From a virus: 33,871 nt of DNA. The DNA lies in IMG/VR virus record IMGVR_UViG_3300037882_001593, positions 1 to 33,871 of that record. One strand, given 5' to 3'. Positions 1-29,910 of this stretch are shown here, in pieces (within the stretch, counting starts at the first letter, position 1; every line of letters begins with the position of its first letter). Both the position numbers and the translations under genes were made by a program. The notes under the pieces were generated by a model that ran no database searches, was not told the DNA's origin, and saw nothing but the letters and a program-made list of their open reading frames with translations.

Positions 1-30
1 AAGGCCGAGAGTTTAATAGCTCTCGGCCTT
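1..30. terminator. Perfect 11-bp hairpin at the end of the late operon
   Basis: Positions 1-11 and 20-30 are exact reverse complements around an 8-base loop, giving an 11-bp GC-rich stem. It lies directly beyond the tRNA in the direction of late (minus-strand) transcription, so I read it as the terminator of that operon. The expected minus-strand T tract would be outside the window. On the plus strand only a short TTTT follows five bases later. Confidence 0.7.
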
Positions 31-96: not shown

Positions 97-171
97 TGGA
101 TGCAGGGACGGGACTCGAACCCGCGACCACCAGAGTATGAATCTGAGACTCTACCATTGAGCTACCCTGCG
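97..171 (-). tRNA. tRNA with CAT anticodon (Met, initiator-like Met or Ile2)
   Basis: The minus strand folds into a complete 75-nt cloverleaf: acceptor stem from 171, D arm GCTC/GAGT with a GG-containing loop, anticodon stem TCAGA/TCTGG with loop TTCATAC, variable loop TGGTC, and T arm with TTCGAGT. CCA is encoded at 97-99. The anticodon CAT is the complement of 137-139. The first acceptor pair is a C1 x A72 mismatch, a hallmark of bacterial initiator tRNA. Two other initiator marks are missing: the three G-C pairs of the anticodon stem, and A11:U24, since the tRNA has C11:G24. CAT is also the gene-level anticodon of tRNA-Ile2, whose C34 is modified to lysidine. The structure is clear but the amino-acid identity is open. 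Confidence 0.93.
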
Positions 172-338
172 TGAGTAACGGGATGAATGGGTTGTTTCGC
201 GGGCGTTGCAATCATTTTCTCGCCGGGTTCCAGCGGAGCAGGCCCGTCATACTGCTTGGCGTCCTTCAAGGGGACATACTCGCCGGAGCCGTTGCAAAAC
301 AGGTCTATGCGGCCTGGGTGTTGAATTACGAATGTCAT
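162..338 (-). CDS. Small hypothetical protein after the tail tip gene (58 aa)
   Basis: A 58-residue ORF starts at ATG 338-336, which overlaps the stop codon of the tail tip gene as ATGA, the usual sign of translational coupling. It begins MTFVIQHPGRID, is rich in proline in its second half, and has one cysteine. I do not recognise a family. Its stop codon TAG (164-162) is formed by bases 8-10 of the downstream tRNA, so the ORF and tRNA overlap by 10 bases. The coupling makes it likely to be expressed, but its short length leaves some doubt. Confidence 0.65.
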   Translation of the reverse strand: MTFVIQHPGRIDLFCNGSGEYVPLKDAKQYDGPAPLEPGEKMIATPAKQPIHPVTHAG

Positions 339-3300
339 GGATAAGATGGGATGGTTTGCTCGGCGCAGTAAGTAATCTCAGCGCCCCAGCGGTCAACGAC
401 GCCGACGCGCCAGTATTGAGCCGCATGAGTTCCTGCCGTGAGGGCGATGGCGAAATCATAGCCGAGGAATAGTCCGGTTGAGAGCAACGAGAGCGATCCT
501 GATGTCGGCCCGCCGTAAACCTTGTATTCCTTGATGTCCGTCGCCTGTGACTGCATCCAAGTAATGCGGTAGGTATTCTGCGTCAGTTCTTCTTTCGTGA
601 GGAGGAGGGCCATTCCGGTAACGGCGGCAGGTTCAGCGTTTTCGACTGCGAGCGTCTCAAACTCATCGGAAGTCCCAGCCGCGTTGACCGCGTAAACCTC
701 GAACGTCAGTTCGCGCTTCATCACGGCACCGCCGCCGACAGTCGCAACATCGAGTTCGGCCTGAGCGACGGTGTAGTTGAGGAAGGTGCCGCTAAGATTG
801 ATGGTGTTTAGCAGAAGCATTCCGTCCGTCTGGTAAACCTTCACTGAGACATCAGAACTTCCGCCTGATGCGGAAACCCAGCGAATCAACGCCTCGTAGG
901 AGTCGAACACGGTTGGAGTGGCCGAGCTTACAGCATTGGCCAGAGAAAGCCCCGAGACGACGCCTGGGACGGCGGCAGCGACACCAACCTCGCCTTGCCA
1001 GTAGGACCAGCGGCCTTGCCCGGTGTTTACCCCTGCCACGCGGGCGATGAGGAACGACGGCGAGACGGTCAGTGGGTAGGAGAGTCCGTTGATGGAATTG
1101 GACGCTGGCCAACCGTCCGTGATGCGAATGGCGGTGCCGCCCGAGCCGTCCGTGTCTATCGGAACCGCTATGCCTGCCGTCGCGTCGTCGGCAGTCTTGG
1201 CCAGCTTGAACGTGCTTCCTGTCAGGAAAATGCAGTAGTAAGCCTTCAACGTGGTGAGCCCGCCGAAGCCCGCTGAGAACGTCACCAAGATCATGTCGCC
1301 CGTGATAAACCCGTGCGAGGCTTTCGTCAGGATGTCAGTCCCGGCCACGGCAGACAGCGCACCGCCAACGTCCGCGACGACCTGAGTCTCGACAACGTAG
1401 TAACGAGCACCGGGGGCAGCGCGCCACGAAACAACCGCCCGCGTGAGTTGGCCGGGGACTCCTGCCACCAGAACGCCCGTCACGGTCGGCAAGGCCGGAT
1501 TTAGCGGCACGTCGGACGTGTCAGGAAGCGCCGGGACTGGATAATCGCCCTCGTCGTCGGCAGCGAAGATTTCCGGTGCGTAGTTTACGAGGTTCAGTTC
1601 CACCTCTTCCTTGCCGGAGGGCGACATTCCCACCACGATCATTTTCTTTACCCAAAAGTCGTTGATGCCGAAGACGAAGGGAGCGCGTTCGTGGATGTCA
1701 TCCAGTGGGATGTTATCAATCCCAGTTTCGTCGTCGGCGTCGTCGGTGAGGTCCGCGCAGGTCACATGGTAGTCGTCAACGCCCGGCAGAACGTCGAACG
1801 GCCCCATCATGTCGCCGTTGAACGCCTTGAACGACATGACGTGTGAGGTGTTCGAGGTGACGACCTCTGTGATCCCGGCGCAGGTGCCGTTGGCGATGGC
1901 GATGTTCAACGTCGCGTCATAGGCCGTGCCCGTCTTGGGCTTCAACGAGATGCGGTCCCCGGTGCCGAAGACATCGTAGAGGTCCGTCACGTCGCTCTCA
2001 GCGAGGAGAGCCTTCCTGACCCGACTCGCCCACATTCCCGGCGTGTCGTCGTCAACTACAGCGACCGAAACGACAACCGGAGCGCCATCAATTGTGACGG
2101 TCACAGTAGCGTTGCCCGTGGTGGTGATGGTTCCTACTGCCACGGCATTTGTCCCAAAGCGGCAGGGCTGGTTTACCTCCACGATGGAAGGCGAGCCGAA
2201 CGTAATGCTCTCAACCCGTCCGCCAACCCCCCAGCGAGGTTTGTCCCGCATGATGCCGACCATTGAACCGTAGGCGGCAAGCTGACCCTCCATGCCGACT
2301 TTGATAGAAAGGTTCATCCGCTGGTAACGCTTCCGCGCATACTGAATCATTCCTTCCTGATATGCCTGACGGCGAACTGTTACACCCATGAGGTTAATCC
2401 TATCGGGGTTTACCGGATAAGCCTCGTCAGGGAAGTAGCACATCACCGTTTCCTCTTTCAGCGTGTCCTCGTCAACGTAGGTCACTTCAAGCCCGTCCAT
2501 TGGGTCCGTCTCAGGCGTTTCAATGGCCAAGTCGGCGGAGTCCTTTACGATGGTGGCGGTGTTGTAGAAGGTGCCGGGGAGCGTGATGGGATTGTCCCGA
2601 ACGATGGTGAGCTTATTGCCGTTCATCATGGGCCGACCGCGCCAAGCAGCGGCGATGGTTTTCAGCGGACCATCCCAAAGGCCGGTTCGCTGGGTGAACT
2701 GGCCGTCAAAGGTGTTTCCGAGCGCCTCATCCGCCTCGTCCAGCGCAACCAGCGCCTCAAGGTCAATCTGGCTGTCACTCCTGCGCCCGCCGTAGCTCGC
2801 CCGAGCCACGTTGACGAACGCCCAAACGAGAGAGCGGGTTGCCGTAGGAGCCGACCACGTTTTGTAGGTCAGGTCGTAAATCGGGAGCTTTCGGGTCGCC
2901 ACGAAATTAAAAGTCGCCTGAGACTGCGTGTTTAGGTTGTTGGTAGCCAACGCCTTAAACGCAACCATGTGGACGTTTCCGTAATCCACGGTCGATGGAA
3001 GGAAGACGCGGAGCGCCTGCCAAGACAGCGTGTTTCCAGAGCGCGGGTTCAAGTCGCGGTCGTTTACGCGGTTGGCGCGGATGTGGGTTACGCCGAGCGG
3101 GACGGTAGTGTTGACGGTGAACCTTTGCGGCGTGTTGGTGGCGAGCGTCCGCGAGAAGTTGAAGAGTTGCGCCCATGTGGTTCCTCCGTCCGTTGAATAC
3201 TCCCAAAGCCCTTGGATTGTGTTGGAAACGAAGTTGCCCTGGGTGTCGGAGGCGTAGAGGCCGTTGGGAAAAACGATGTCAATGCCGATGCTGGTCCCCA

Positions 3301-4072
3301 GCGCCGTCCCGGTGGCGTAACCCTCTTCATCGAGAACGTAATCGTCCTCATTGGGGCCGTAGAGTTCAATCCCTTGCACGTTGGCCACGGTGATGACGTT
3401 ATCAGGAAACAGCGTTACAGGCGTGCTGGGCGGGCAGTTCTGAACCTCAATCCCCTCGAAGTTGACGATGTTCGTGTCACCGAAGCGCCAGCTTGGAACG
3501 TCCACGCCATCAACCTCTTCCGTCTCGATTTCATACTCACCATGGCCGAGACAAAGAATGACGTAGAGAATCTGTTTCCCGTTCACGTCGAACTCGTTGT
3601 AGGAGCCGGAGCCGTAGGAGGGATACATCCTCATCCGCCCGTAGTTATCAGGGATCGGCTGGCCATACTTGTTTTCGTTCTGCCTGCCCTCCAGATTGTA
3701 AACCGAGTTGGGAAGTTTCTGCTGCCCCGGCAACTGAGGCTTGGGCATCGTCAACACCAAGACGATTGCCGCGACGACGAGAACGACGAGGATGGCGATG
3801 AAGAGCGTTACAACGTCGCCGGGGATCGCCGTGAATGTGATGATGTCGTCAGGCTGAATGACGTAAGTGTGCCATGCTTCCGGCAGTAGGTAGTCGAGTT
3901 TGCCTTCTCCACCGCGAACGGCCACCGAGCAGACAGTCGGCACGGTGAAGTTCACGAACCCCGGCGTGCGAATATGCAACCATTCCCATACGGTAATTCC
4001 GCCCGCGTGCTGATGCTCGACGGCGGGTTGTCCCGGTAGGAACGGGTTTAGGTATTCGCGGATGACGGCCAT
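335..4072 (-). CDS. Tail tip / host-specificity protein (lambda gpJ-like)
   Basis: At 1245 residues this is the largest gene, in the position and size range of lambda gpJ-type central tail tip proteins, which form the receptor-facing end of the tail. Residues 87-109 form one long hydrophobic stretch, a transmembrane-like segment seen near the N-terminus of several relatives. Residues 120-620 have the general look of the J core (YNLEGRQNENKYGQPIPDNY, then GHGEYEIE). Fibronectin-III-like modules occupy roughly 861-1030, 1034-1140 and 1146-1240. Two stretches look like inserted beta domains: about 641-742, rich in Val/Thr, and about 904-983, which splits the first FN3-like module. The start overlaps the upstream NlpC/P60 gene by 25 bases. 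The leader carries ACC-rich sequence, not a Shine-Dalgarno site. Receptor specificity cannot be inferred. Confidence 0.9.
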   Translation of the reverse strand: MAVIREYLNPFLPGQPAVEHQHAGGITVWEWLHIRTPGFVNFTVPTVCSVAVRGGEGKLDYLLPEAWHTYVIQPDDIITFTAIPGDVVTLFIAILVVLVVAAIVLVLTMPKPQLPGQQKLPNSVYNLEGRQNENKYGQPIPDNYGRMRMYPSYGSGSYNEFDVNGKQILYVILCLGHGEYEIETEEVDGVDVPSWRFGDTNIVNFEGIEVQNCPPSTPVTLFPDNVITVANVQGIELYGPNEDDYVLDEEGYATGTALGTSIGIDIVFPNGLYASDTQGNFVSNTIQGLWEYSTDGGTTWAQLFNFSRTLATNTPQRFTVNTTVPLGVTHIRANRVNDRDLNPRSGNTLSWQALRVFLPSTVDYGNVHMVAFKALATNNLNTQSQATFNFVATRKLPIYDLTYKTWSAPTATRSLVWAFVNVARASYGGRRSDSQIDLEALVALDEADEALGNTFDGQFTQRTGLWDGPLKTIAAAWRGRPMMNGNKLTIVRDNPITLPGTFYNTATIVKDSADLAIETPETDPMDGLEVTYVDEDTLKEETVMCYFPDEAYPVNPDRINLMGVTVRRQAYQEGMIQYARKRYQRMNLSIKVGMEGQLAAYGSMVGIMRDKPRWGVGGRVESITFGSPSIVEVNQPCRFGTNAVAVGTITTTGNATVTVTIDGAPVVVSVAVVDDDTPGMWASRVRKALLAESDVTDLYDVFGTGDRISLKPKTGTAYDATLNIAIANGTCAGITEVVTSNTSHVMSFKAFNGDMMGPFDVLPGVDDYHVTCADLTDDADDETGIDNIPLDDIHERAPFVFGINDFWVKKMIVVGMSPSGKEEVELNLVNYAPEIFAADDEGDYPVPALPDTSDVPLNPALPTVTGVLVAGVPGQLTRAVVSWRAAPGARYYVVETQVVADVGGALSAVAGTDILTKASHGFITGDMILVTFSAGFGGLTTLKAYYCIFLTGSTFKLAKTADDATAGIAVPIDTDGSGGTAIRITDGWPASNSINGLSYPLTVSPSFLIARVAGVNTGQGRWSYWQGEVGVAAAVPGVVSGLSLANAVSSATPTVFDSYEALIRWVSASGGSSDVSVKVYQTDGMLLLNTINLSGTFLNYTVAQAELDVATVGGGAVMKRELTFEVYAVNAAGTSDEFETLAVENAEPAAVTGMALLLTKEELTQNTYRITWMQSQATDIKEYKVYGGPTSGSLSLLSTGLFLGYDFAIALTAGTHAAQYWRVGVVDRWGAEITYCAEQTIPSYP

Positions 4073-7728: not shown

Positions 7729-8205
7729 TTAGGCAGGGATGATTTCGGCCTCAAGCTCAACCGCATACAATCTCGCAACGGCGGCTTCAAGGGCGATGAG
7801 TCCTCCGGCGTCAATGACGGCTTCAATCTCTTCGGCGTTGTAAGCCTCGCATTGATCGCGGGTTTCGAGTGTTGCGGTGACGCGAAAGTTTAGAATCCCG
7901 AAGTGAGAATCTGAATACTCTCCTCCGACAAAGCGGACAACCTTTGATTCCATCTCGCCCGCGATAGGCAGCGTCATGCTGAACCAGTCGGTTCCGTTGG
8001 CGATGTCGTCCTTGAAGAAGGTTTGGAACTCCGCAAATTCGGTGCCGTCAAACTCCCATTCCACGCTGACCCTGCGCTGATTCTCAATCTCACGCGGGCG
8101 TTGCCGTGACAGCCCGGTTTCCATCTGCGTGCGCGAAAACGCCGTCCTGAGCTTCTGTGAGAAGTCAGGTGAGCAGGCCGGGAGAGTTGCGGGCCACGTT
8201 TCCAT
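7729..8205 (-). CDS. Tail protein, longer paralog
   Basis: 158 residues. The first 117 align without gaps to the protein at 6259-6612. A 41-residue C-terminal tail rich in Glu and Ala (EEIEAVIDAGGLIALEAA) is unique to this copy. Its start codon overlaps the end of the tape measure gene by one base. Being first after the tape measure, it occupies the position of distal tail or minor tail proteins that cap the tail tube, but its sequence is not one I can tie to a known fold. Confidence 0.85.
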   Translation of the reverse strand: METWPATLPACSPDFSQKLRTAFSRTQMETGLSRQRPREIENQRRVSVEWEFDGTEFAEFQTFFKDDIANGTDWFSMTLPIAGEMESKVVRFVGGEYSDSHFGILNFRVTATLETRDQCEAYNAEEIEAVIDAGGLIALEAAVARLYAVELEAEIIPA

Positions 8206-11108
8206 TATGCGACTCCTTGCCTACGGAGGCCGTATTTACGCTCGTAGGCGCGAGCTTGGCGGGAACTTCCCTCCATGATCTTCGCCGCGCCTCGTTTATC
8301 CAGTTCCTCAATCATCACTTCGATGTCGCCCATCTCGTTCATGCGGGCGCTCGCGGAAGTGCCGGAGGCGTTGTTGTAAACGTAGACGTTGACAGCAGGC
8401 TTTCCGCCCGAGGCTTGGCCGTTGGCCAGCGCCATGAAGTTTCGTTGCTGATTCCCATTCAGCACCGCCTCGCCAGCGTTGCCGTGGAAAAGAACCCGGT
8501 CGCCCGTGGTCTGACTTCCGCCAAGGAAGCCACCGTCTGCGAACTTACCCGAGTATTCCTGAGCGGAGGTCGCAGCCATGATGGCGACTGAGGCGTAACC
8601 AAGCCCGCGAATGGCTACCGACATCGGAATCCCCAAGTAGAACCCGCCCTCAACGTAAGCCCTTGTAGCGGCCAACTCAGTATTGACGATAGCCTGTGCA
8701 ATAGAGATGCCTTTCATGGCTAAAAAGGTCGCCTTTGCCGCGTCTGAGTTATGCTGGGCGAGTTGGTCCAACTGCCCGGCGATGTTAGAGGACATCCCGA
8801 GAACCGTGGAGGACATTTCCAGGTTCTTCATGTAGACGATCATCGCCCCGGTCGTGCTGATCTTACCCAGGTCAGCCGTGTATTGACGCCAGAGCCTGCG
8901 AGACTCGTCCATGTAAGCCTCGTCGCTCATCTTCTGAGCATCGCGGGCGTCGTTCAGCATCCGAAGCTCGGTTTCATACTTCGACTCAAGAGTCTTGAAC
9001 TGAATGTCGTCTCGCTCAGGTTTGGTAAGTTCTCGCGTAAATGGATCGTCGCCGGGATCAGGCGCTGGCACAATGCCGTCTCCAACGGAAATCTTTGAAA
9101 CGGCGTCAACGTAGGCCTGCCAGTTCTCCTTGGACTTGTTCAGACGCTCAACTTCCTTGCCGTCGCTATTCCTAAATGCACGCTGAATCTGACGTTCGCG
9201 GTCCTCGTATTCCTGCTTAAGAATGTCCCTGCGGGAATCCGCCAGCTTCTTGAAACTTTCAACCGTCTTGGCGCTCACGATTTCAAGTGCCTTCTCTTGT
9301 TCCTTGCTGTCTTCAAGCGTCATCTTTTTGACGTAATCCGACATCTTGGTGTGTTCAGCGAAGATAGCAGACTCGTCGCCTCCCTTCTTCCCAAGGAAGA
9401 ACTCAAAGTCAGCCTTGCGTTTGTCACCCTCATCCCAACTCGCTTCAATGCGGCTGCGGATGGAGGCAGAGCGGGTCACGCTGTCCGTCCTCTTTTTGTC
9501 TTCGAGAGCTTTAACCTTACGGCTGTAATCAGCGTAAGCCTTGTGCTTAATGTCGAGACGCACGAACTCAGCGTTCTGCCCTTCGATTTCAAGCTCATCA
9601 ATTTCCTTCTGAGTGTCCCTGTATTTTTGATTCAGAACGGAAAAGTCGTCCGCGAATCTCAACTGCATCTCAATGACGGCACGCTCTTTGTCATACTTGG
9701 CTTTTGCGGCCTCGGCCACTTCATCGAGAATTTCCTGCTCGGTCTTGACCGCAGCCTTGGCCTTTGCCGCCGCAAGCGTAGCTGGCGTGCCCTTGTCATC
9801 AAGTGCCGCATCTGAAATGCCAAACGTAAGCCCACTTGCTACGCCCTTGGCTCCTTTTGTAGCAGCTTCCTTAAACTCCATTTTTGAGATGTGGCCCGCA
9901 ACCTCGCCTGCCCGCTCAACCTGCCTTGTAAACGTGGTCAGGATGTAATTCCATCCGTCCAGAACGAGAGTCAGCCCTTGAACCAACTTGCCGAGCGTGT
10001 CAGAAACTCCGCCCTTCGACATACTGGAAATAAAGTTCTTCCATGCGCTGTCCAAATTGGAGATGGAGCCCGCAAGGGTCTTCATCTTGTTGGCTGACGC
10101 CTCCGCGAACGTGGAGCTTTGGCCCAACTTTATGAAGTAGCCCTCAAGTCCGGCCTTGGTCCGATCTACTGTCTCGGAGATGTTGTTGAAGGTCAGCTTC
10201 ACCTTATCCCCGACAACCACGGCTTCAACACCAAGGCTGCGAATACGGCGGTAGTCATTGGCCACGCCACGGGAGACGGCCAAAACCACGTCCTCAATGC
10301 TTTTGGATGAAGCCGAAGAGATTGCTGAATATGAACGCAAAGCCTCCTCGGATGGAGTCAGGCCAAGGTGAACAAGGTTTACGAAAGCCCCGGTGAGTTC
10401 GCCTATGTCGTGCGGAAGTTGACGGTCGAGAATCTTCAACGTGGCAAACATCTCGTTGGCTTTCTGGGCACTTCCGGCCACGGTCAAAAGTCGGGCCTCA
10501 AGAACTTCCATCTCCACGATGGTGTTCTTGATCTCGTTTAGCCCGAAGCCGACGCCAAGACCTGCGGCAAGCGGACCAACCTTACCAGCGATGTTCGACA
10601 CCGTGACACCGGGCAGTAGTCCGCCGGGACGGCCAAATCCGCCAGCGGCAGCGCCGTTGATAGTCCCGCCGCCACCTCCGCCGCCGCCCCATCCTCCCGA
10701 CGCGCCGGAAAAGCGGTTTTCCAGCCTCGCCTTGTCAATGGTCTGCTGGCGGGCCTCTTGAATTTTACGCTCGGCTTCAATCGCGGCAGCGGCCCGGCGC
10801 TGCTCGCCCATGATGAAGGTTTGCTCGTTTCGCTTGAAAGCGTTGTCTACCGCCGTCGCCCGCGCCTGCGACATCGCAATAAACGACTGAGAGTTGCGCT
10901 TGAACTGATTCTCAAGCCTCTCGTTCGCTTGGTATTGCTTGTAGGAGGCGTCCTGCTGCTTCTTCGCCCAATACTCACTGGCTTTCGCCATCTTATCCGA
11001 CGACACCTCAACCTTGTCGGCAGACTTCGCTACTTTCTCAAGGCTGTCAGCGGCCTTTTCGACCCCCTGGCCGTCCACTCGAATGATTAGGTGTGCTAAC
11101 TGGTCCAT
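8205..11108 (-). CDS. Tape measure protein
   Basis: 967 residues, the longest gene between the tail chaperones and the tail tip. It starts with a typical tape-measure N-terminus (MDQLAHLIIRVDGQG) and a long Ala/Lys/Glu coiled coil. In that coil FKRNSQSFIAMSQARATA at 69-86 is repeated as FKRNEQTFIMGEQRRAAA at 91-108. A pure glycine run lies near 138-148. The region at about 170-400 holds the conserved tape-measure domain (EVLEARLLTVAGSAQKANEM). More coiled coil follows, then a Gly-rich C-terminal domain (GKFADGGFLGGSQTTGDRVL). Its length sets tail length, by the usual relation about 145 nm. Its start lies 62 bases inside the end of the frameshifted chaperone product. Confidence 0.93.
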   Translation of the reverse strand: MDQLAHLIIRVDGQGVEKAADSLEKVAKSADKVEVSSDKMAKASEYWAKKQQDASYKQYQANERLENQFKRNSQSFIAMSQARATAVDNAFKRNEQTFIMGEQRRAAAAIEAERKIQEARQQTIDKARLENRFSGASGGWGGGGGGGGTINGAAAGGFGRPGGLLPGVTVSNIAGKVGPLAAGLGVGFGLNEIKNTIVEMEVLEARLLTVAGSAQKANEMFATLKILDRQLPHDIGELTGAFVNLVHLGLTPSEEALRSYSAISSASSKSIEDVVLAVSRGVANDYRRIRSLGVEAVVVGDKVKLTFNNISETVDRTKAGLEGYFIKLGQSSTFAEASANKMKTLAGSISNLDSAWKNFISSMSKGGVSDTLGKLVQGLTLVLDGWNYILTTFTRQVERAGEVAGHISKMEFKEAATKGAKGVASGLTFGISDAALDDKGTPATLAAAKAKAAVKTEQEILDEVAEAAKAKYDKERAVIEMQLRFADDFSVLNQKYRDTQKEIDELEIEGQNAEFVRLDIKHKAYADYSRKVKALEDKKRTDSVTRSASIRSRIEASWDEGDKRKADFEFFLGKKGGDESAIFAEHTKMSDYVKKMTLEDSKEQEKALEIVSAKTVESFKKLADSRRDILKQEYEDRERQIQRAFRNSDGKEVERLNKSKENWQAYVDAVSKISVGDGIVPAPDPGDDPFTRELTKPERDDIQFKTLESKYETELRMLNDARDAQKMSDEAYMDESRRLWRQYTADLGKISTTGAMIVYMKNLEMSSTVLGMSSNIAGQLDQLAQHNSDAAKATFLAMKGISIAQAIVNTELAATRAYVEGGFYLGIPMSVAIRGLGYASVAIMAATSAQEYSGKFADGGFLGGSQTTGDRVLFHGNAGEAVLNGNQQRNFMALANGQASGGKPAVNVYVYNNASGTSASARMNEMGDIEVMIEELDKRGAAKIMEGSSRQARAYERKYGLRRQGVA

Positions 11109-15668: not shown

Positions 15669-16679
15669 TTAGTCGTTGACCTTGAGGAATGCGACCGGGA
15701 TGTTTTTACGATCCCAAACACGGTTCCAATTCGCGGCGGTGGCGAGTTGGGCGTAGGTGGCGGCTTCGCTGTTCGTGACAGACGAGTTGGTGAACGTGAA
15801 ACCGTATGGGTGCCAGACGTTCGACACGCGGGAGTAGATGACATCGTAACCGCCGCCGTTGCCAGCGTTGGGAACGCGCTCCATTTCGGAGGGAACCAGC
15901 ACGCGACCGTTGGCAGTCCCGATGGCACCGGCACCGAAGAGGATACAGGTGTAGGTGGTGCGGTTAGTCCCGGCCACAGCGGGGAGGGAGTCGTCAACGA
16001 TCAGGCGCTTGCCGAGGTAGGTCGGGAAGCCGATGTTGGAGCCAGCGGGGGTGACGTAATCAATGAGTTCGGCCTTCTGGAGACGGGCGTGAACTTTGGA
16101 GTGAACGGCAATCGCGGTGATGCTTTCCTTGTGATCCCCAAGGGTCTGGAGGGCGTCAATTACGACATCGCCGGAGATGCGTTCGGCGTCGGTGATGGCG
16201 TCGGCGGAGTCGGTGGCGACGTTCTTCACCATGTCGCCGGAGTCGTTGGCGACGTTATCGGCCAGAACGCCAAGCAGCGATTGGATGATGCGCTTTTCGT
16301 TATCGGTGGCCCAGAAGGCGGCAACGCGGTTGACGATGGCACCAAGCGGGTCAACGAGGGCGAGTTCGCGGGCAACATCCATCGTGGACCAAGACTTGTT
16401 ACGCTGGGCAACGCGGAAGGCTTGAACGGCCTTGGCGATCTTGGCGTGAGTCACGGTGTCGGACGGGTCGTCGTTCGAGTAGTTGGGCTCGCCAACGGTG
16501 AGAGGTTGCATCCCGGTAAGTTCACCGAGGTTGCCGCCCTGAGAGATTTGGCCCGCGATAACTCCATCCATCATGGCGATGCCAGAATTGAGGAAGCGGT
16601 TGAGGGCGGTTTGACGCTCTTGAACAAGAGCGCCAAAGGTAAGCGGATTGTAGATGTCCGCGATTTGGACGTTAGCCAT
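15669..16679 (-). CDS. Major capsid protein
   Basis: 336 residues located right after scaffold. The N-terminus (MANVQIADIYNPLTFGALVQ) and C-terminus (ATAANWNRVWDRKNIPVAFL) are characteristic of a large family of phage coat proteins with the HK97 fold. Internal blocks such as AVHSKVHARLQKAELIDYV and PTYLGKRLIVDDSLP belong to the central domain. It assembles the icosahedral head on the scaffold. The leader (AACCTAAACTATC before ATG) has no Shine-Dalgarno sequence despite the high expression expected. Confidence 0.94.
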   Translation of the reverse strand: MANVQIADIYNPLTFGALVQERQTALNRFLNSGIAMMDGVIAGQISQGGNLGELTGMQPLTVGEPNYSNDDPSDTVTHAKIAKAVQAFRVAQRNKSWSTMDVARELALVDPLGAIVNRVAAFWATDNEKRIIQSLLGVLADNVANDSGDMVKNVATDSADAITDAERISGDVVIDALQTLGDHKESITAIAVHSKVHARLQKAELIDYVTPAGSNIGFPTYLGKRLIVDDSLPAVAGTNRTTYTCILFGAGAIGTANGRVLVPSEMERVPNAGNGGGYDVIYSRVSNVWHPYGFTFTNSSVTNSEAATYAQLATAANWNRVWDRKNIPVAFLKVND

Positions 16680-17472: not shown

Positions 17473-17637
17473 TTATTCCTCAGAGTCGTCGGCCTCGCTC
17501 GAAATTACCTCATCGAGTGCGTCCAAAGCCGTTTCAATAGCCTGGCCAAGCAGGACGGGATTCGTGGCCTCGCCATCACCGCCACGACGCCATTCGTTGT
17601 GGTCGGACAGGATTTTACGCGCTTCCAGATTCGTCAT
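17473..17637 (-). CDS. Small acidic phage protein between portal and scaffold (54 aa)
   Basis: A 54-residue ORF starts at ATG 17637-17635, overlapping the portal stop codon (ATGA), and ends with TAA at 17475-17473. It contains ILSDHNEWRRGGDGEATNP followed by LLGQAIETALDALDEV and an acidic end. Short proteins with an HNEWRRG-type motif and a following helix are common in phage genomes near structural genes. No function is known to me. Coupling to the portal gene strongly supports translation. Confidence 0.82.
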   Translation of the reverse strand: MTNLEARKILSDHNEWRRGGDGEATNPVLLGQAIETALDALDEVISSEADDSEE

Positions 17638-19142
17638 ACGTCGCTGGTCTCCTTCTTCGGTTGAGTAACCTTCTTCTCCAAGGTGGCCTGAGCCTCCTCT
17701 TCCTTCTTCTTGGCCTCATACCATGTCTTCCACTCCTCGGTTGTCGCGCTGGTCATGCTGCCGCGCTTAAACTGGTCGCGCATCTCGTCATCGGTGATCG
17801 CTCCGGCCTGCCAGTTCGCAACCATCTGGGCCTGATCGCTCGGCGTCAGGTCGTTGGTGCGGAAGTCAGTGGACAAGCGAATCTGCAACTCGGCAGTTTC
17901 CCAACCCGAGTCCACGAACTGCATGGCGCGGCGAATGATCCACTCGTAAGCCTGCGAAACGTTGTTCGCCATGCGGGCGAGAGCGCAGCTTGAGGCCCCA
18001 TCATGTAATCCAGCCTCGAATGCGGTCATCGCCACCTTCGACATCTCAATCAGCTTCGCTCCAATCGCCACCATCTGCTTCTCCTTGTGGGTCATGGCCT
18101 CGAACGCCAGCGTGTTCGGTTTCGCCTGGGCAATCCCCATCTGGCCATCTGGCGGCAGCGGGATAATCGTTCGACTGCCGACAAGAACCTTACCGCCCAA
18201 CTGCTCCTTCAGCCAATCGGAATCCAGTCCGCTCATCCAGTAGGTCGGCTGGCCAGTCTGGTAAACCGACTCCTCGTAGTCGGCGGAGTTCCGAAAATGC
18301 GCCCGGTTCAACTCGGTCAGGCCGTCCATCGGAGGCAGGTCGCAACTCGAATCGTTGTTCTCGCTGCCGACGAACGTAAACGGGATTTCCGTGAGCGGTT
18401 TTCCGTCAACCATCGGCGTCCAGCGCATCAATTTCTCCTCGCCTGCTGGAATTATCTCAAACTCGCCCTTTTTATCGGTCTTCTCGCGCCAGAGTTCAAT
18501 CACGACCTCTCCCGCGTCGTTCAGATACAGCACGCGCCAAGAATTATCCAACTTCTGCTCGAATCCGTCGTCGTTCGTGACGTATTTTTCCGAGATAACC
18601 AGACGGATCAATTTCGTGACGCCGCCAAACTCTCCCAATCGCCAATTCACGATGTCGAACGGCTGCACCAGCGTCACTGTGGGCCGGATGTTCCCCTTCG
18701 TCATCTGTTCCCGCGTCACCATCCCGTCGGTAGCAGGGAAATCGGCCAGTAGTCCGCACCTACCAAACGCGATAACGTGATTCAGCGCCTTGCTCGACTG
18801 CTGCACCAGCGACACGCCCGCACCGTCAACGTCCATCTCCAGACGCTTCACAGACTCGGGCAGGCGGACTACCGGAGGGTCGCTGAAAACCTGCCCATTG
18901 TAGCCTTCCAGCGTGCGGGCAACCGCAGGGTAAAAACAGGCACGTTCGATGTATTGGTCATACCTCGTCGTGTTCTCGGTGGACGTGTCGGCAGCGTTTG
19001 GCTTCGGCAGCACCAATTCGCGCAGCGCACGCACCGAGTCAGCGCCGGAGACAAACGCATGGATCAGTCGCCATTTCGGCAGCAGCGCCGAGTAGTCGTC
19101 GTGGCAGTGGGCGATGTTAGGTCCAGTCGAGGCAGCAGGCAT
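17634..19142 (-). CDS. Portal protein (DUF4055-type)
   Basis: 502 residues. The sequence matches the DUF4055 family of portal proteins: a helical N-terminus, FVSGADSVRALRELVLPKP, YIERACFYPAVARTLEGYNG, then VTLVQPFDIVNWR, and the central FVGSENNDSSCDLPPMDGL. The final quarter, QMVANWQAGAITDDEMRDQF, and a Lys/Glu-rich tail are also typical. Twelve copies form the DNA channel at one head vertex and bind the terminase. It follows TerL and the 83-residue gene and overlaps the next small gene by 4 bases. Confidence 0.93.
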   Translation of the reverse strand: MPAASTGPNIAHCHDDYSALLPKWRLIHAFVSGADSVRALRELVLPKPNAADTSTENTTRYDQYIERACFYPAVARTLEGYNGQVFSDPPVVRLPESVKRLEMDVDGAGVSLVQQSSKALNHVIAFGRCGLLADFPATDGMVTREQMTKGNIRPTVTLVQPFDIVNWRLGEFGGVTKLIRLVISEKYVTNDDGFEQKLDNSWRVLYLNDAGEVVIELWREKTDKKGEFEIIPAGEEKLMRWTPMVDGKPLTEIPFTFVGSENNDSSCDLPPMDGLTELNRAHFRNSADYEESVYQTGQPTYWMSGLDSDWLKEQLGGKVLVGSRTIIPLPPDGQMGIAQAKPNTLAFEAMTHKEKQMVAIGAKLIEMSKVAMTAFEAGLHDGASSCALARMANNVSQAYEWIIRRAMQFVDSGWETAELQIRLSTDFRTNDLTPSDQAQMVANWQAGAITDDEMRDQFKRGSMTSATTEEWKTWYEAKKKEEEAQATLEKKVTQPKKETSDV

Positions 19143-19150
19143 GGCGTGTC

Positions 19151-19402
19151 TTATGAAATGGTTAAATGTCCGTCGTTAATCGCAGTCTCGATACGCTCTG
19201 TCATCTTAGACCTACACCTTTCCCAATAACAAGCACGGCGAAAATTCTTCTTCTTTGCGCAGCGCAATTCATTCACAAAGTGCATTCTGGCACTGGCAAT
19301 CAAACGCTTTAAATAGGCGTCGGCTTCTACTCTCATGGCAATTCGTCCGGTCGGCATACGCGGAAATCTCAGGCAATTCGGCAAAAACGCAACACAATTC
19401 AC
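19151..19402 (-). CDS. Small basic protein between terL and portal (up to 83 aa)
   Basis: The longest version starts at GTG 19402, overlapping the terL stop (GTGA) with GGAGG three bases upstream. An ATG at 19336 would give 61 residues beginning MRVEADAYLKRLI. The more convincing part is the C-terminal 60 residues: basic, helical, with NFRRACYWERCRSKMTERIE. I do not recognise the family. Its place between terminase and portal suggests a packaging or DNA-binding role, but that is inference. Confidence 0.7.
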   Translation of the reverse strand: MNCVAFLPNCLRFPRMPTGRIAMRVEADAYLKRLIASARMHFVNELRCAKKKNFRRACYWERCRSKMTERIETAINDGHLTIS

Positions 19403-21012
19403 GCGCCTCCATACCAGCGGGTTTCAATCGCCCCAAACGTCCGCTTACGGTCCAGCACGCGGTAGCGAACTGCATCCCAAGGGTGGTCCTGGCCGTCGCT
19501 CGCCGCGTCATCAGGGTCTTTCATGTCGCGCTGCAACTGAGGCAGCAGGTTCAGCGCCGCCTGGCAGTTGTCCATGAAGTAAATCCCCGGCCCATCCCCG
19601 GTCACGGACGCCAGCAGCATATCGCGCATCAGGGCCAGGCCGTTCTTTCGGCTCCCAGGCGATTTATCCGATTCCGTCCAGCGGATTTTTTCAGCGGCCA
19701 TCCGCTTCGCTATCGAGTCGGTGTCCGCGTCGTTCTGATTGTGAATCTGGTTATCCGCCGCGCCGGGTTTCACCTCGCCAACAATCCACTCCTTGTCGCG
19801 CATCGTCTTCTCGCGGGCCGCAATTCCCTGGGCAACCGCTTTTGGCCCCAAGCGCAGTCCAACATTCGAGGTCCACGACGTTGAGCCATACCACTCGTTG
19901 AACATAATCAGCGACCCGCGGGGCAGTCCCCACCAGATCGTCTTTCCCTCGCCCCAAGGAATTTCAATCTCACTTCCGTCAGCCTCCGCCCACCACGCGC
20001 AGTAAAACGGCACGGTCGAGCCCCAATCGAATGTCCGGTCCTTCTTCCACTGAGGCGGAACCTTGAATCTCGGCTTCCTGACGTAGCGGTGATCCCAAAC
20101 GTCATCCAGAGCGCCTCCAGCGGTCACGTTCCAGTCGCCGTGCGCCCATGCCTTGCGCTTGTTCTCGTCCGTTATCTGCACCAAGTCGGCGATGTAGGCA
20201 TCAGGCAGTTTCCCGTTCTCAATCCAGTGACCGAAAACGTGAGTCTTCGTTACCTTCACGATCTGCTCTTTACGGGTCGCAGGGCTGAGAATCTTAATCT
20301 CCTTCGTCACTATCTCGCCGGGGTCGCCCGCATCAATGAAATACCGCTTCACCCAACTGTGTCCCACACCGTGAGGGTTCGTTGTGCAAAAAATCTCCAG
20401 CGGAATCGGCGGCAGCGGGTTCGATGGGTCGGGACTATTCATCTCGGGGACGAAACTCGAACGATTGCACGACTTGATTGCATCAAAGAAATCACTCGTC
20501 GCCTGCTTAGTTAATTCGTTGAATCCAATAAACGGGTATTCGTGACCGTGGAACTGATGATAGTCCATCGCCGTGCTGCCAGTTCTAAACATTAACTCCT
20601 CACCAGTAGGCCAAACCCATTTGTAATCCTTCGCGGAACGCAAAAACACTGCGCCATCATTAAACTGCGGAAACCATTTTAGAGTCTTCGCTACGATGTC
20701 ATCCAAATTCTTGTATTCTACATCGAAAATCACGCCACGCCAAAACGCTCCATAGCCAACGCCTACATTCCGGCGAAAACGCATAATCTGACAATCAGTT
20801 TTCCCCGGACCCCTCGGACCATGATACAACGTCTCCTTCGCTGGACTCGCTAATGCCAAACTCTGGCTCCCAAAGTGAGGCTTCCAAACCACCTTCACGT
20901 CATCAGGGATTCTACCACGCTCCAACGTCCGAAATCCCAAACCCTTACGGCCACGGCTTTGACGCACAGGTTCGTCATTCACGTTCAAAAGTTCATCAGC
21001 GATCATCGGCAT
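19399..21012 (-). CDS. terL: Terminase large subunit
   Basis: 537 residues with both TerL domains. The ATPase has Walker A GPRGPGKT at 65-72, a Walker-B-like strand FIGFNE at 161-166 and a coupling motif CTTNPHG at 209-215. The RNase-H-like nuclease has acidic residues in FDWGST (Asp329), near Asp420 and in WDAVRY (Asp513). It cuts concatemeric DNA and pumps it through the portal. The start ATG 21012 follows a leader with a repeated CTCTGGGGTAAA element and no Shine-Dalgarno site. The gene order TerS, zinc protein, TerL, small basic protein, portal is compact. Confidence 0.95.
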   Translation of the reverse strand: MPMIADELLNVNDEPVRQSRGRKGLGFRTLERGRIPDDVKVVWKPHFGSQSLALASPAKETLYHGPRGPGKTDCQIMRFRRNVGVGYGAFWRGVIFDVEYKNLDDIVAKTLKWFPQFNDGAVFLRSAKDYKWVWPTGEELMFRTGSTAMDYHQFHGHEYPFIGFNELTKQATSDFFDAIKSCNRSSFVPEMNSPDPSNPLPPIPLEIFCTTNPHGVGHSWVKRYFIDAGDPGEIVTKEIKILSPATRKEQIVKVTKTHVFGHWIENGKLPDAYIADLVQITDENKRKAWAHGDWNVTAGGALDDVWDHRYVRKPRFKVPPQWKKDRTFDWGSTVPFYCAWWAEADGSEIEIPWGEGKTIWWGLPRGSLIMFNEWYGSTSWTSNVGLRLGPKAVAQGIAAREKTMRDKEWIVGEVKPGAADNQIHNQNDADTDSIAKRMAAEKIRWTESDKSPGSRKNGLALMRDMLLASVTGDGPGIYFMDNCQAALNLLPQLQRDMKDPDDAASDGQDHPWDAVRYRVLDRKRTFGAIETRWYGGA

Positions 21013-21776: not shown

Positions 21777-22346
21777 TCAGTCGCTCGAGCCCTCCGGCGT
21801 TGGTCCTGGATCACTGGCAACCGCCAACGCAGGCAAGGCAATCGGGCATCCGTGCGCGTGCTGCGTGTCGTGCTGTGCCTCGGATGGGTGAGGAGGTGGA
21901 GGGAAGTGCCAAAAGGGCGGGTCTTGGCGTGCGAGCCGTTCCGCCATGTCTTCAGCTGGTGGAAGCGGAGGGTTGTCAGGTATGGCGGTCGCTGGCCTCG
22001 GTATGACAAAGCAGCGGCCTGACTTCCCATTTCCCATGTAAGCGGTCTTAACCTCCCGTTTGTAAGCATTCGCGTTAAACGTCCTAACAAAGCGACTCTT
22101 AACCCCGACAACCATGCCGCAAGGGTGATGCCATACACCTTGTTCCTTTCGTTCACTTTCGTGCATTGAATCGAAACGTTTGAATGCTCCTTCAATCTCC
22201 CCTGGCACTGTTACGGTTTTCGGGTCAATGTAAGCCTTTTTAGCTCTTTGCGTGTAAGACAGCGCGGACCCGTCGGCCTGCTTAACGGTGAGCGTAAACG
22301 CTAGACCGCTGTCAATTAAATCAATCAAGTTTTGTGGAATCTGCAT
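21777..22346 (-). CDS. Hypothetical protein, first gene of the late strand (189 aa)
   Basis: 189 residues, start ATG 22346 next to the AT-rich control region, ending before a strong terminator. The N-terminal 115 residues look folded (LIDLIDSGLAFTLTVKQADG, then VPGEIEGAFKRFDSMHESER and GVWHHPCGMVVGVKSRF). The C-terminal third is Pro- and His-rich and probably disordered (WHFPPPPHPSEAQHD). I recognise no family. As the promoter-proximal gene with its own terminator it could be made earlier or in larger amount than the structural genes, and may be regulatory. Confidence 0.75.
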   Translation of the reverse strand: MQIPQNLIDLIDSGLAFTLTVKQADGSALSYTQRAKKAYIDPKTVTVPGEIEGAFKRFDSMHESERKEQGVWHHPCGMVVGVKSRFVRTFNANAYKREVKTAYMGNGKSGRCFVIPRPATAIPDNPPLPPAEDMAERLARQDPPFWHFPPPPHPSEAQHDTQHAHGCPIALPALAVASDPGPTPEGSSD

Positions 22347-22448
22347 AGGTCAGAATAAGTCTAAATAAAAACAAGCGCGGTCAATCTCTTTTTTCTATTA
22401 TTTCAAAACGCCAAGAAGGTTCTCCGTCCTCGCCCTCCTTTGCCAATT

Positions 22449-23154
22449 GCAAGTCGCTCGAAACCAACAATTTGCGAAAAGCTGTATGACTTCGCTAAAT
22501 AAGCAAGGCGACTGAATAGCACGATTGACTACTCTTAACCCGCTGACAGTCAAATACTTGCTCTGCTTTTGACTTTTTTGGGATTTATTACGGGAAAAAT
22601 GGAGAGACTGTTAAAGAGAGGATGAAAAACAGTAAAAGATAGTAAAACAGTAGATTAGTAAATGAAAACATGATAAAGAGTGTATAATAGTAATTAATAG
22701 CATAAATTTTTATCGATAAAAAGATAGAGCTTAAATAAATAAATAAAATAAAATAATATTTAGTAGTAGTAGTAGTAGTAGTCCTGTGTTAATCCGTTGA
22801 TTGCCAATGACTTGCGACGCGGTTTTTTTATTATTTCAGGACGTAAGATGGATTCTGTATCCCTATTTTTTCCTAACCGTCAACCATTTGCAAGTCGTTG
22901 AATGAGAGTGAGTTATTAAAATGGTTAAGTAAAAAGATTTATGAATGAACGTCGAAGTTGTTGATTGTCAGGGACTTGCGCGTCGTATGGTTAGGAAACG
23001 CAAGTTATTGATAGTGAGGAAGTTAAATAATAACGTGAAGAGGCTTTTGGAAAAGACGCGCGAAAGTCGAAGCGGGAAAGGGTGATTTGCCTGGGGAAAT
23101 GGGAGCGGTTTTTCTGTGTTTTTCGGAAAAGAGTTTGATTGGAAAACGTAAGTC
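22449..23154. repeat. Family of GCAAGTC-type motifs (iteron or operator-like)
   Basis: Six related sites: GCAAGTC at 22449-22455 and 22890-22896, GCAAGTT at 23000-23006, GTAAGTC at 23148-23154, and inverted copies (GACTTGC) at 22809-22815 and 22973-22979. Similarity goes beyond the core: both inverted copies continue on their own strand as CAAGTCxxTGxCAATCAAC. Those at 22890 and 23148 are followed by a TGAATGAG-type segment, with GTGAGTTATTA and GAGTTATGAG nearby. All lie in the gene-free region. Confidence 0.7.
22761..22782 (+). repeat. TAG trinucleotide repeat, seven units
   Basis: A pure tract of seven TAG units plus one T, directly after AT-rich low-complexity sequence (AAATAAAATAAAATAATATT). 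It is a simple-sequence repeat in the control region and could change length by slippage. Confidence 0.95.
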
Positions 23155-23189
23155 GCTGTCAGTGAATGAGTTATGAGACGAAAAAAGTT

Positions 23190-23235
23190 AAAAGATTCTT
23201 CGAAAGTGGCTTGACTCCACTGCCAGGGAGTGCAT
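23190..23235 (+). promoter_or_regulatory. Candidate early promoter region with shared upstream element
   Basis: AAAAGATTCTTC at 23190-23201 is followed by GGCTTG at 23208-23213. TTGACT (23211-23216) is a good -35; 17 bases on lies ATTGTT, a weak -10 preceded by TGC as in extended -10 promoters. A small inverted repeat ACTCC/GGAGT lies between the hexamers and could be an operator. The same AAAAGATTCTTC...GGCTTG element occurs upstream of the gene at 25595. The predicted leader would be about 20 bases. Confidence 0.4.
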
Positions 23236-23261
23236 TGTTTCTTTTGTAACCACCACCACCT

Positions 23262-23783
23262 ATGACCACCACCCAAACACCTACCATGTGTCCTGCTCGC
23301 ATTGGCTCCATCTCATCCGGCACGCTTAGGGCGCCCGATTTATTAAACGCATTCGCTTACACCTTAGAGGGGTTAGTGTTTATCAATGGCGAGTTTCTTT
23401 GCCTGCCTGAAAATATGGGCATGAGAGACAGTCTGAATAATTTAATTGGCGAGGTTTCCGACTGTTTGGACGATTCAGGCGAGGAAGTTGCAGAAGGAAA
23501 AGATGAGGAAGCGGGTTGGTTGGTTGAAAACCTTGTTGATTCACTGAACATCTTTGCCCCGCCGTTTTGTTTTTTTGGCGCGCATGAAGGCGACGGTGCG
23601 GACTTCGGCTTTTGGCCTTGCATTGATGCAGCAAAGGAGAATTGCGAGTTCGTTTCCTCCCGTTTCACTGAATTTCCCGAAAGTGATTTTCAGGGTGAAT
23701 GGTTGCACATTTCGGACCATGGAAACTGCACGCTTTATGTTCGGACTGATGGAGAAGACAAAGAAGTTTGGTCAATCGTTTAA
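23262..23783 (+). CDS. Hypothetical protein, first gene of the early operon (173 aa)
   Basis: A 173-residue acidic protein. It contains SSGTLRAPDLLNAFAYTLEG near the N-terminus, a Glu/Asp-rich middle (DDSGEEVAEGKDEEAG), and an aromatic region (APPFCFFGAHEGDGADFGFW). Similar proteins occur on plasmids and other mobile elements, but I know no function for them. The leader is AACCACCACCACCT before ATG with no Shine-Dalgarno site. Being first after the control region, it is probably expressed early. Confidence 0.87.
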   Translation: MTTTQTPTMCPARIGSISSGTLRAPDLLNAFAYTLEGLVFINGEFLCLPENMGMRDSLNNLIGEVSDCLDDSGEEVAEGKDEEAGWLVENLVDSLNIFAPPFCFFGAHEGDGADFGFWPCIDAAKENCEFVSSRFTEFPESDFQGEWLHISDHGNCTLYVRTDGEDKEVWSIV

Positions 23784-23806
23784 GTTAACCCACTAAAAAT
23801 TTTCCC

Positions 23807-24106
23807 ATGAAAAACGTTATTGAATTTGGTAAAAAAGGCGGATTTCACGTTGACAACTTAGTTGTGCCAACTGCGAAACTTGCCGCTTCTATGGCTTGCA
23901 ACTTAGTTTGCACTTTTGAGAATGACAGTTTTGCGACAACTTTTCAGCAATGGCTTTTAATGCCGCTTGAAAGTCGCAAGACCTGGGAAAGTGAAACTCA
24001 CTTTGTTGCGGTGTCGAAACTTGACAGAAAAGACCGTGGACCGGCAAGCGCTATCCTTTGGCGAGAAGGTGTTCAATTTATGGCAAAGCAAATCATTACC
24101 GAATAA
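23807..24106 (+). CDS. Hypothetical protein (99 aa)
   Basis: 99 residues, beginning MKNVIEFGKKGGFHVDNLVV, with a central ENDSFATTFQQWLLMPLESR. It has alternating hydrophobic and charged segments and no membrane span, zinc site or known motif. The leader contains AACCCACTAAAAATTTTCCC and no Shine-Dalgarno site. No family recognised; small soluble early protein. Confidence 0.82.
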   Translation: MKNVIEFGKKGGFHVDNLVVPTAKLAASMACNLVCTFENDSFATTFQQWLLMPLESRKTWESETHFVAVSKLDRKDRGPASAILWREGVQFMAKQIITE

Positions 24107-29198: not shown

Positions 29199-29494
29199 CC
29201 CAGCGAAAGCCCAAAGGGCCGCTGATTACCCCCATGCCGACCCGTTGCCGTGTGGACATGCCGAACTGCGCCGACAACGAGCGTTTGCGGGCTGTTTTGA
29301 AGGCAATCGTCAAGCCTTCCAGCGTGCTGCGGAAGGCCGGAAACTCTCACATGCCGCAACTGTCTCGCCTGTCCGGCATGGCGGGGCTGTCGAGGTCCGC
29401 GCTTGCCCGGTTTCAGTCGGGGCGGGTCATGGTCATGGGTGAGTCGAACCGTGCGAAGGTGTGGGAAGTTTTGAAAGCGGAGGGGTTGACATGA
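29195..29494 (+). CDS. Putative helix-turn-helix regulator (99 aa)
   Basis: 99 residues, GTG start overlapping the previous stop (GTGA). The segment MPQLSRLSGMAGLSRSALAR at about 53-72 followed by FQSGR looks like a Cro/CI-type helix-turn-helix (hydrophobic helix, Gly turn, recognition helix). The C-terminal WEVLKAEGL is typical of such short regulators. Its place at the end of the early operon beside the adenine methyltransferase suggests gene control, such as the early-late switch. Confidence 0.68.
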   Translation: MTQRKPKGPLITPMPTRCRVDMPNCADNERLRAVLKAIVKPSSVLRKAGNSHMPQLSRLSGMAGLSRSALARFQSGRVMVMGESNRAKVWEVLKAEGLT

Positions 29495-29910
29495 GTGTGC
29501 ATTTTTCGAGCGCGTCGGACAACTGGGCAACTCCTCAAGACTTTTTCGACAAGGTGAACAGCGAATTGGGGCCGTTCGACATTGACGTTTGCGCTTCTGC
29601 TGAAAATGCGAAGTGTGGCGTTTATTTTACCGAAAGAGACGACGGACTTAGGCAGCGATGGAGTGGCAAGGTCTGGATGAATCCGCCCTACGGTCGCACC
29701 ATTGGCCATTGGATGAAAAAAGCCTACGAATCTTCACGGGGGGGGGCTACGGTGGTTTGCCTTGTCCCGGCCCGCACTGACACCGCTTGGTGGCACGACT
29801 ACGCCGCGAAGGGTGATGTCCGGTTTATCCGTGGCCGTCTAAAGTTCGGCGGTCACAAAAACTCTGCACCGTTTCCAAGTGCTTTAGTTGTTTTCAAGCC
29901 GTGGTGCTAA
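29491..29910 (+). CDS. Phage DNA N6-adenine methyltransferase (Dam, PF05869-type)
   Basis: 139 residues from ATG 29491, overlapping the previous stop as ATGA. The sequence starts SASDNWATPQDFFDKVNSEL and has FDIDVCASAENAKC as the cofactor-binding part, then VWMNPPYGRTI with the catalytic NPPY motif at 64-67 and later LVPARTDTAWWHDY and FIRGRLKFGG, all typical of the phage Dam family. It probably methylates adenine in phage DNA, protecting against restriction. The coding part has a run of nine G (29738-29746), read as Arg-Gly-Gly. Terminator follows. Confidence 0.93.
   Translation: MSVHFSSASDNWATPQDFFDKVNSELGPFDIDVCASAENAKCGVYFTERDDGLRQRWSGKVWMNPPYGRTIGHWMKKAYESSRGGATVVCLVPARTDTAWWHDYAAKGDVRFIRGRLKFGGHKNSAPFPSALVVFKPWC

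What the first reader, a model, noticed from the sequence alone, without database searches (positions are those of the whole stretch)
97..171. Phage tRNA-CAT with an initiator-like C1 x A72 mismatch
Seen: full cloverleaf, encoded CCA, anticodon CAT and an unpaired first acceptor position. Known: the 1-72 mismatch marks bacterial initiator tRNA and lets formyltransferase act and excludes it from elongation. The anticodon-stem G-C pairs and A11:U24 are absent, so identity is mixed. In a phage whose genes mostly lack Shine-Dalgarno sites, a dedicated initiator-like tRNA would be a new way to favour phage translation start.
Basis: partly seen in the sequence, partly recalled or inferred. Interest (0 to 1): 0.65.

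Follow-up and report, generated by a model that had tools for sequence, protein, structure and literature searches.

The report
Phage-encoded initiator-type transfer RNA
This virus carries one transfer RNA gene that looks like the special tRNA bacteria use to start proteins; many unrelated phages turn out to carry such a start tRNA, often as their only tRNA, which suggests that they bring their own starter for protein synthesis.

Summary
In detail: one complete tRNA-CAT lies at 171..97 (minus strand) with C1xA72 open, encoded CCA and no other tRNA in the 33.9-kb record. The mismatch is not random decay. In an acceptor-blind IMG/VR sample of 97 distinct phage tRNA-CAT genes, about a third are unpaired at 1:72, against 44 of 1,103 for other anticodons (38 of them tRNA-Gln). 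The unpaired ones share independent initiator traits (R11:Y24, G30:C40) and often are the record's only tRNA (10/15 versus 0/30 for elongator-type). Named phages (PaMx74, D3, R6L, QDWS359) carry such genes, mostly labelled tRNA-Met or not annotated.

The window's gene is a divergent member. Of the three anticodon-stem G-C pairs only the middle one (30:40) remains; it has C11:G24, C26, U73 and loop UUCAUAC, where every bacterial initiator examined has CUCAUAA. Initiator-type is the best call; elongator Met cannot be excluded. Best explanation: a formylatable starter tRNA that tops up or replaces the host pool. The altered loop would suit resistance to initiator-cleaving nucleases, untested.

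The parts
97..171 (-). tRNA-CAT gene, 75 nt with encoded CCA; initiator-type acceptor stem
   Evidence: ARAGORN, Rfam RF00005 59.8 bits, fold, parse
171..171 (-). C1, unpaired with A72 at position 101
   Evidence: alignment; parse
100..103 (-). G70 C71 A72 U73: initiator-type 3' acceptor end with U73 instead of A73
   Evidence: sequence, parse
130..146 (-). anticodon arm UCAGA-UUCAUAC-UCUGG; only G30:C40 (143:133) of the three initiator G-C pairs kept; U32 and C38 differ from the bacterial CUCAUAA
162..338 (-). 58-aa ORF overlapping the tail-gene stop (ATGA) whose own TAG stop is U8-A9-G10 of the tRNA, so tRNA and upstream genes abut; no PHROG match
   Evidence: sequence and translation; PHROGs
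335..4072 (-). tail protein J homologue, last long gene of the minus-strand structural block upstream of the tRNA
   Evidence: PHROGs phrog_469 and phrog_31; tblastn
1..30 (.). 13-bp hairpin downstream of the tRNA at the contig end, possible terminator; the T-run is seen only on the + strand side

Best explanation
The gene encodes a divergent phage initiator-type tRNA. It is inferred to be co-transcribed with the minus-strand structural genes and cut out of that transcript. Host MetRS would charge it with Met through anticodon CAU. The open 1:72 end with G2:C71 and C3:G70 would let host formyltransferase act and would weaken EF-Tu binding and peptidyl-tRNA hydrolysis. G30:C40 would support P-site selection, as in naturally unconventional initiators such as the AU/GC/GU initiator of Mycoplasma pneumoniae. 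The benefit to the phage would be to keep initiation going when the host initiator pool is too small or is being attacked. Shown here: the anatomy, the recurrence of the class, the association of traits, and lone-tRNA status. Inferred: charging, formylation, use in initiation, and the benefit.
For: Anatomy. Specificity of the mismatch: 32 of 96 cleanly parsed distinct tRNA-CAT genes in an acceptor-blind IMG/VR sample are unpaired at 1:72; other anticodons 44 of 1,103, of which 38 are tRNA-Gln. Association with independent initiator traits after 85% redundancy reduction: G30:C40 24/25 versus 13/36 (p 1e-6), R11:Y24 19/25 versus 3/36 (p 6e-8), C3:G70 25/25 versus 14/36. Over all 123 distinct unpaired genes, 30:40 is G:C in 117, against 35 of 79 paired ones. 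Lone tRNA: 10/15 records with the unpaired type versus 0/30 with the paired type, p 9e-7; 32 of 51 other records; also PaMx74, R6L and the window. Conserved place terL-tRNA-nrd in four Bradleyvirinae-type phages (PaMx74, QDWS359, Donnerlittchen, Elanor). The central G-C pair is the most important of the three (PMC7005279), and natural initiators with AU/GC/GU exist (PMC10568206).
Against: The window's own copy has C11:G24, C26, A:U at 29:41 and 31:39, and U73; U73 may weaken charging by MetRS (own knowledge). AU/GC/AU was found in no other copy. Its score without acceptor features, +4.3 bits, lies in the zone where both classes occur. No close relative covering this locus was found, so selection on this particular copy could not be measured. 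Host unknown.
Confidence: 0.6

Rival explanations
1. Elongator tRNA-Met in which position 1 or 72 has mutated, leaving an accidental mismatch; it would read internal AUG codons.
For: C11:G24 and the weak anticodon stem are elongator-like; the non-acceptor score is only +4.3 bits towards initiator.
Against: 1:72 mismatches are very rare in other phage tRNAs apart from tRNA-Gln. Elongator-type phage tRNA-CAT genes sit in tRNA arrays (0 of 30 alone), while the window's is alone. G30:C40 and the CGCAGGG/CCCUGCA stem match the initiator-type class.
Confidence: 0.22
2. tRNA-Ile2: C34 is changed to lysidine by TilS and the tRNA reads AUA.
For: The anticodon is CAU; a vibriophage tRNA(CAU) with lysidine is described (PMC13191261).
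Against: Ile2 tRNAs of known type have a paired 1:72 (own knowledge). The acceptor stem and lone status fit the initiator-type class.
Confidence: 0.05
3. Attachment-site relic or pseudogene: a host tRNA-fMet fragment left by integration.
For: Some viral contigs do carry host-identical fMet genes within about 80 bases of the contig edge, as prophage flanks would.
Against: The window has no tyrosine integrase. The gene is complete and its sequence is unlike host initiators, whose listed copies are nearly invariant in D-arm and loop. In temperate relatives the integrase lies far from the tRNA.
Confidence: 0.05
4. A decoy or sponge that binds initiator-targeting toxins or nucleases but does not itself initiate.
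For: Divergent anticodon stem, U73 and loop; toxins that target initiator tRNA exist (PMC8522696).
Against: A sponge should keep the target site, whereas nearly half of one phage set alters the loop. Acceptor and G30:C40 features needed for initiation are kept.
Confidence: 0.08

Closest known systems
Bacterial initiator tRNA-fMet
   Same: C1xA72, G2:C71, C3:G70, CAU anticodon, G30:C40, encoded CCA
   Different: C11:G24 not A11:U24; A:U at 29:41 and 31:39; C26 not G26; U73 not A73; loop UUCAUAC not CUCAUAA, which is invariant in the bacterial copies examined
Unconventional initiators with AU/GC/GU anticodon stem (Mycoplasma pneumoniae, PMC10568206) or AU/GC/GC (many Pseudomonadota)
   Same: Middle G-C pair kept while flanking pairs are weakened
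   Different: The window has AU/GC/AU; host and compensating ribosome changes are unknown
Phage tRNAs labelled tRNA-fMet or tRNA-Met with an initiator body (Stenotrophomonas QDWS359, Pseudomonas D3 and PaMx74, Erwinia pEa_SNUABM_47 in PMC7760394)
   Same: Phage-borne CAT tRNA; C1xA72 in PaMx74 and QDWS359, C1xU72 in D3; a single tRNA in PaMx74
   Different: Those read here retain more of the initiator anticodon stem and D stem; pEa_SNUABM_47 is known here only from its published annotation
Phage tRNAs that replace nuclease-cut host tRNAs (van den Berg 2023, PMC10264068; PMC11555353)
   Same: Altered anticodon loop compared with the host form
   Different: Those proposals rest on other isotypes; van den Berg reports that phages generally avoid tRNA-fMet where VapC cuts it. 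PMC11555353 was seen only as an abstract

Membership tests
Bacterial-type initiator tRNA | No Watson-Crick pair at 1:72 | tested here: met
   C1xA72
Bacterial-type initiator tRNA | G2:C71 and C3:G70 for formyltransferase | tested here: met
   Acceptor CGCAGGG/CCCUGCA
Bacterial-type initiator tRNA | Purine 11 : pyrimidine 24 | tested here: not met
   C11:G24; 28 of the 123 distinct unpaired phage genes have C:G, the window's included
Bacterial-type initiator tRNA | Three G-C pairs 29:41, 30:40, 31:39 | tested here: not met
   Only 30:40 is G-C. Full 3GC is also missing in 34 of 36 non-redundant phage copies and in many Pseudomonadota hosts
Bacterial-type initiator tRNA | Loop CUCAUAA and A73 | tested here: not met
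   UUCAUAC and U73; bacterial copies 120/120 and 122/122 canonical
Bacterial-type initiator tRNA | Formylation and P-site initiation | not testable with these tools
   Needs biochemistry
Recurrent phage initiator-type tRNA class (as defined here) | CAU, open 1:72, C3:G70, G30:C40 | tested here: met
Recurrent phage initiator-type tRNA class (as defined here) | Usually the only tRNA of the record | tested here: met
   for the window; for the class
tRNA-Ile2 | Lysidine at C34 | not testable with these tools
   A modification cannot be read from DNA
attP relic | Integrase beside the tRNA and host identity | tested here: not met
   No tyrosine integrase in the window; sequence unlike host initiators. 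The record may be incomplete.

The most novel reading that the evidence does not exclude
Many phages carry one own initiator tRNA as an anti-defence and takeover device: an initiator whose acceptor end and central anticodon-stem pair are kept, while loop positions 32/38 and the outer stem pairs are changed so that VapC-like nucleases that cut the host initiator cannot cut it.
Probability: 0.25. Interest if true: 0.85.

Novelty: new variant of a known kind. Interest (0 to 1): 0.6.

Why it matters
Why phages carry tRNAs is a long-standing question, usually answered by codon supply. A lone initiator-type tRNA cannot be explained by codon supply and points to translation initiation as a step phages support or protect. 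Many of these genes are filed as plain tRNA-Met or not annotated, so the class is easy to overlook, and its shared pattern makes a simple initiation and nuclease test possible.

Tried and rejected
Close nucleotide relatives in phage records: none. Relatives of the tail gene at 93-94% identity end before the tRNA, and a search with the tail C-terminus gave only one distant locus. Portal search for a prophage host in GTDB genomes: nothing. DNA pattern with the exact D-arm: no hit. Considered an A(-1):U73 pair as a reason for U73: only 3 of 17 distinct U73 initiator-type genes have A at -1, so rejected. Considered a link with phage peptide deformylase: 4 of 47 records, all large tRNA-array phages, none of the lone type, so no support. 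Considered an attP relic: rejected. Missing 3GC as a purely phage trait: rejected, since many Pseudomonadota hosts have AU/GC/GC, and some viral contigs carry host fMet at their edge, so counts from that pattern are contaminated. Loop alteration is strong in the CGCAGGG set (17 of 36) but weak in the CGCGGGG set (8 of 82 distinct, host copies included), so it is a feature of part of the class only.

Full report
The window is an IMG/VR virus record of 33,871 bases, classed linear. It encodes a siphophage-like structural block on the minus strand: tail J homologue 335-4072, tape measure 8205-11108, major head protein 15669-16679, portal 17634-19142 and terminase 19399-21012. ARAGORN finds a single tRNA, tRNA-Met(cat), at 171..97 minus; Rfam agrees with 59.8 bits. 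It follows the tail gene and a 58-aa ORF whose TAG stop is U8-A9-G10 of the tRNA. A 13-bp hairpin lies beyond it at the contig end. The arrangement suggests that the tRNA is processed from the structural-gene transcript (inference).

Anatomy: acceptor CGCAGGG/CCCUGCA with C1xA72, G2:C71 and C3:G70; U73; encoded CCA; C11:G24; C26; anticodon stem UCAGA/UCUGG (A29:U41, G30:C40, A31:U39); loop UUCAUAC.

Is the mismatch more than chance? Of 97 distinct genes about a third are unpaired at 1:72, most often CA. In non-CAT tRNAs of the loci then held, 1,059 are paired and 44 are not, and 38 of those 44 are tRNA-Gln. Unpaired CAT genes carry other initiator traits far more often than paired ones: after 85% redundancy reduction G30:C40 24/25 versus 13/36, G30:C40 plus G31:C39 21/25 versus 6/36, R11:Y24 19/25 versus 3/36, C3:G70 25/25 versus 14/36. 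Related sequences are not fully independent, so the p-values are indicative.

Two further patterns gave 22 contigs with A72 U73 (not all of them unpaired at position 1) and 61 with the window's own acceptor stem CGCAGGG/CCCUGCA. Across 123 distinct unpaired genes, 30:40 is G:C in 117, 11:24 is A:U in 66 and G:C in 21, and U73 occurs in 15. The window's AU/GC/AU stem is unique in the set, but AU/GC/GU, AU/GC/UG and AU/GC/GC occur. Natural initiators with AU/GC/GU exist in Mycoplasma pneumoniae (PMC10568206), and the central pair is described as the most crucial (PMC7005279).

Named phages: PaMx74 has an unannotated C1xA72 tRNA with A11:U24 directly after terL. The same place, between terL and the nrd genes, is kept in QDWS359 (annotated tRNA-fMet; a tRNA-Ile and one ORF also lie there), Donnerlittchen (U1:A72) and Elanor (U1xU72, unannotated). 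Erythrobacter phage R6L has an unannotated C1xA72 copy. Pseudomonas phage D3, which has four annotated tRNA genes, has a C1xU72 CAT tRNA annotated tRNA-Met.

Lone status: among records of the acceptor-blind sample, the unpaired type is the only tRNA in 10 of 15, the paired type in 0 of 30. In another set 32 of 51 records have exactly one tRNA. Records may be fragments, but that applies to both groups. This argues against codon supply as the reason for the gene. In temperate members the integrase is far from the tRNA, and the window has none, so an attachment-site relic is unlikely.

Where the window's copy stands: a leave-one-out tested naive-Bayes score (56 to 57 of 61 right) puts it at +4.3 bits towards initiator without acceptor features and +12 bits with acceptor features other than pair 1:72. 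That favours initiator but lies near the border, so elongator Met keeps a sizeable probability.

Comparison with hosts: bacterial initiators found with loop positions left free have CUCAUAA in 120 of 120 loci, A73 and G26 in 122 of 122 (this pattern fixes 3GC and A11:U24). A pattern that leaves the anticodon stem and loop free found matches in 109 of 249 Pseudomonadota genomes; all listed copies have CUCAUAA, with 3GC or AU/GC/GC. In the CGCAGGG phage set 17 of 36 non-redundant copies differ at 32 or 38; in the CGCGGGG set only 8 of 82 do, and that set contains host copies at contig edges. So loop change is common in part of the class, including the window's.

Mechanism: the shown facts fit a starter tRNA kept by selection on its acceptor end and central stem pair. 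What it is for is inferred. One idea is extra initiator during the burst. Another is replacement of host initiator cut by nucleases such as VapC, several of which target tRNAfMet (PMC8522696). Van den Berg et al. proposed such replacement for other phage tRNAs and report that phages generally avoid tRNA-fMet where VapC cuts it (PMC10264068). The present class is an apparent counter-example whose loop is often altered. No functional study of a phage initiator tRNA was found in the held library; absence there is not absence in the literature.

Verdict: observation confirmed, interpretation partly supported, a new and divergent variant of a known but little-noticed kind of phage gene.

Noticed in passing
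window 1-33871: Genes lack Shine-Dalgarno enrichment (9 of 43 with a core; mean duplex energy weaker than at random positions); many upstream regions look rich in A and C, which may point to a host that does not rely on SD pairing.
   Followed up: partly
window 22001-24000: G+C drops to 0.42 against about 0.58 elsewhere, at the junction of the minus-strand structural block and the plus-strand gene block.
   Followed up: no
window 29461-29910 and 32333-33166: Two DNA methyltransferase-like genes of different PHROG families, phrog_111 and phrog_757.
   Followed up: no
L007:3359-3434; L008:4001-4077; L213:4003-4078; L221:1501-1577: Complete tRNA-CAT genes of initiator type in PaMx74, R6L, Elanor and CN1A (CN1A with U1:A72) that the public records do not annotate.
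   Followed up: yes
records of L038, L049, L053, L059, L079, L084, L090, L092 (G016, G022, G024, G027, G039, G041, G047, G048): Large tRNA-array phages (23-34 tRNAs) also carry initiator-type tRNAs; four of them (G022, G024, G039, G047) encode a peptide deformylase.
   Followed up: partly
L214:429-503: Stenotrophomonas phage RAS14 has an ARAGORN call for a tRNA with anticodon tta (a TAA-reading suppressor type) in its tRNA cluster.
   Followed up: no
viral tRNA-Gln genes in the fetched loci: 38 of 44 non-CAT phage tRNAs with an unpaired 1:72 are tRNA-Gln(ttg), mostly U1xU72.
   Followed up: no
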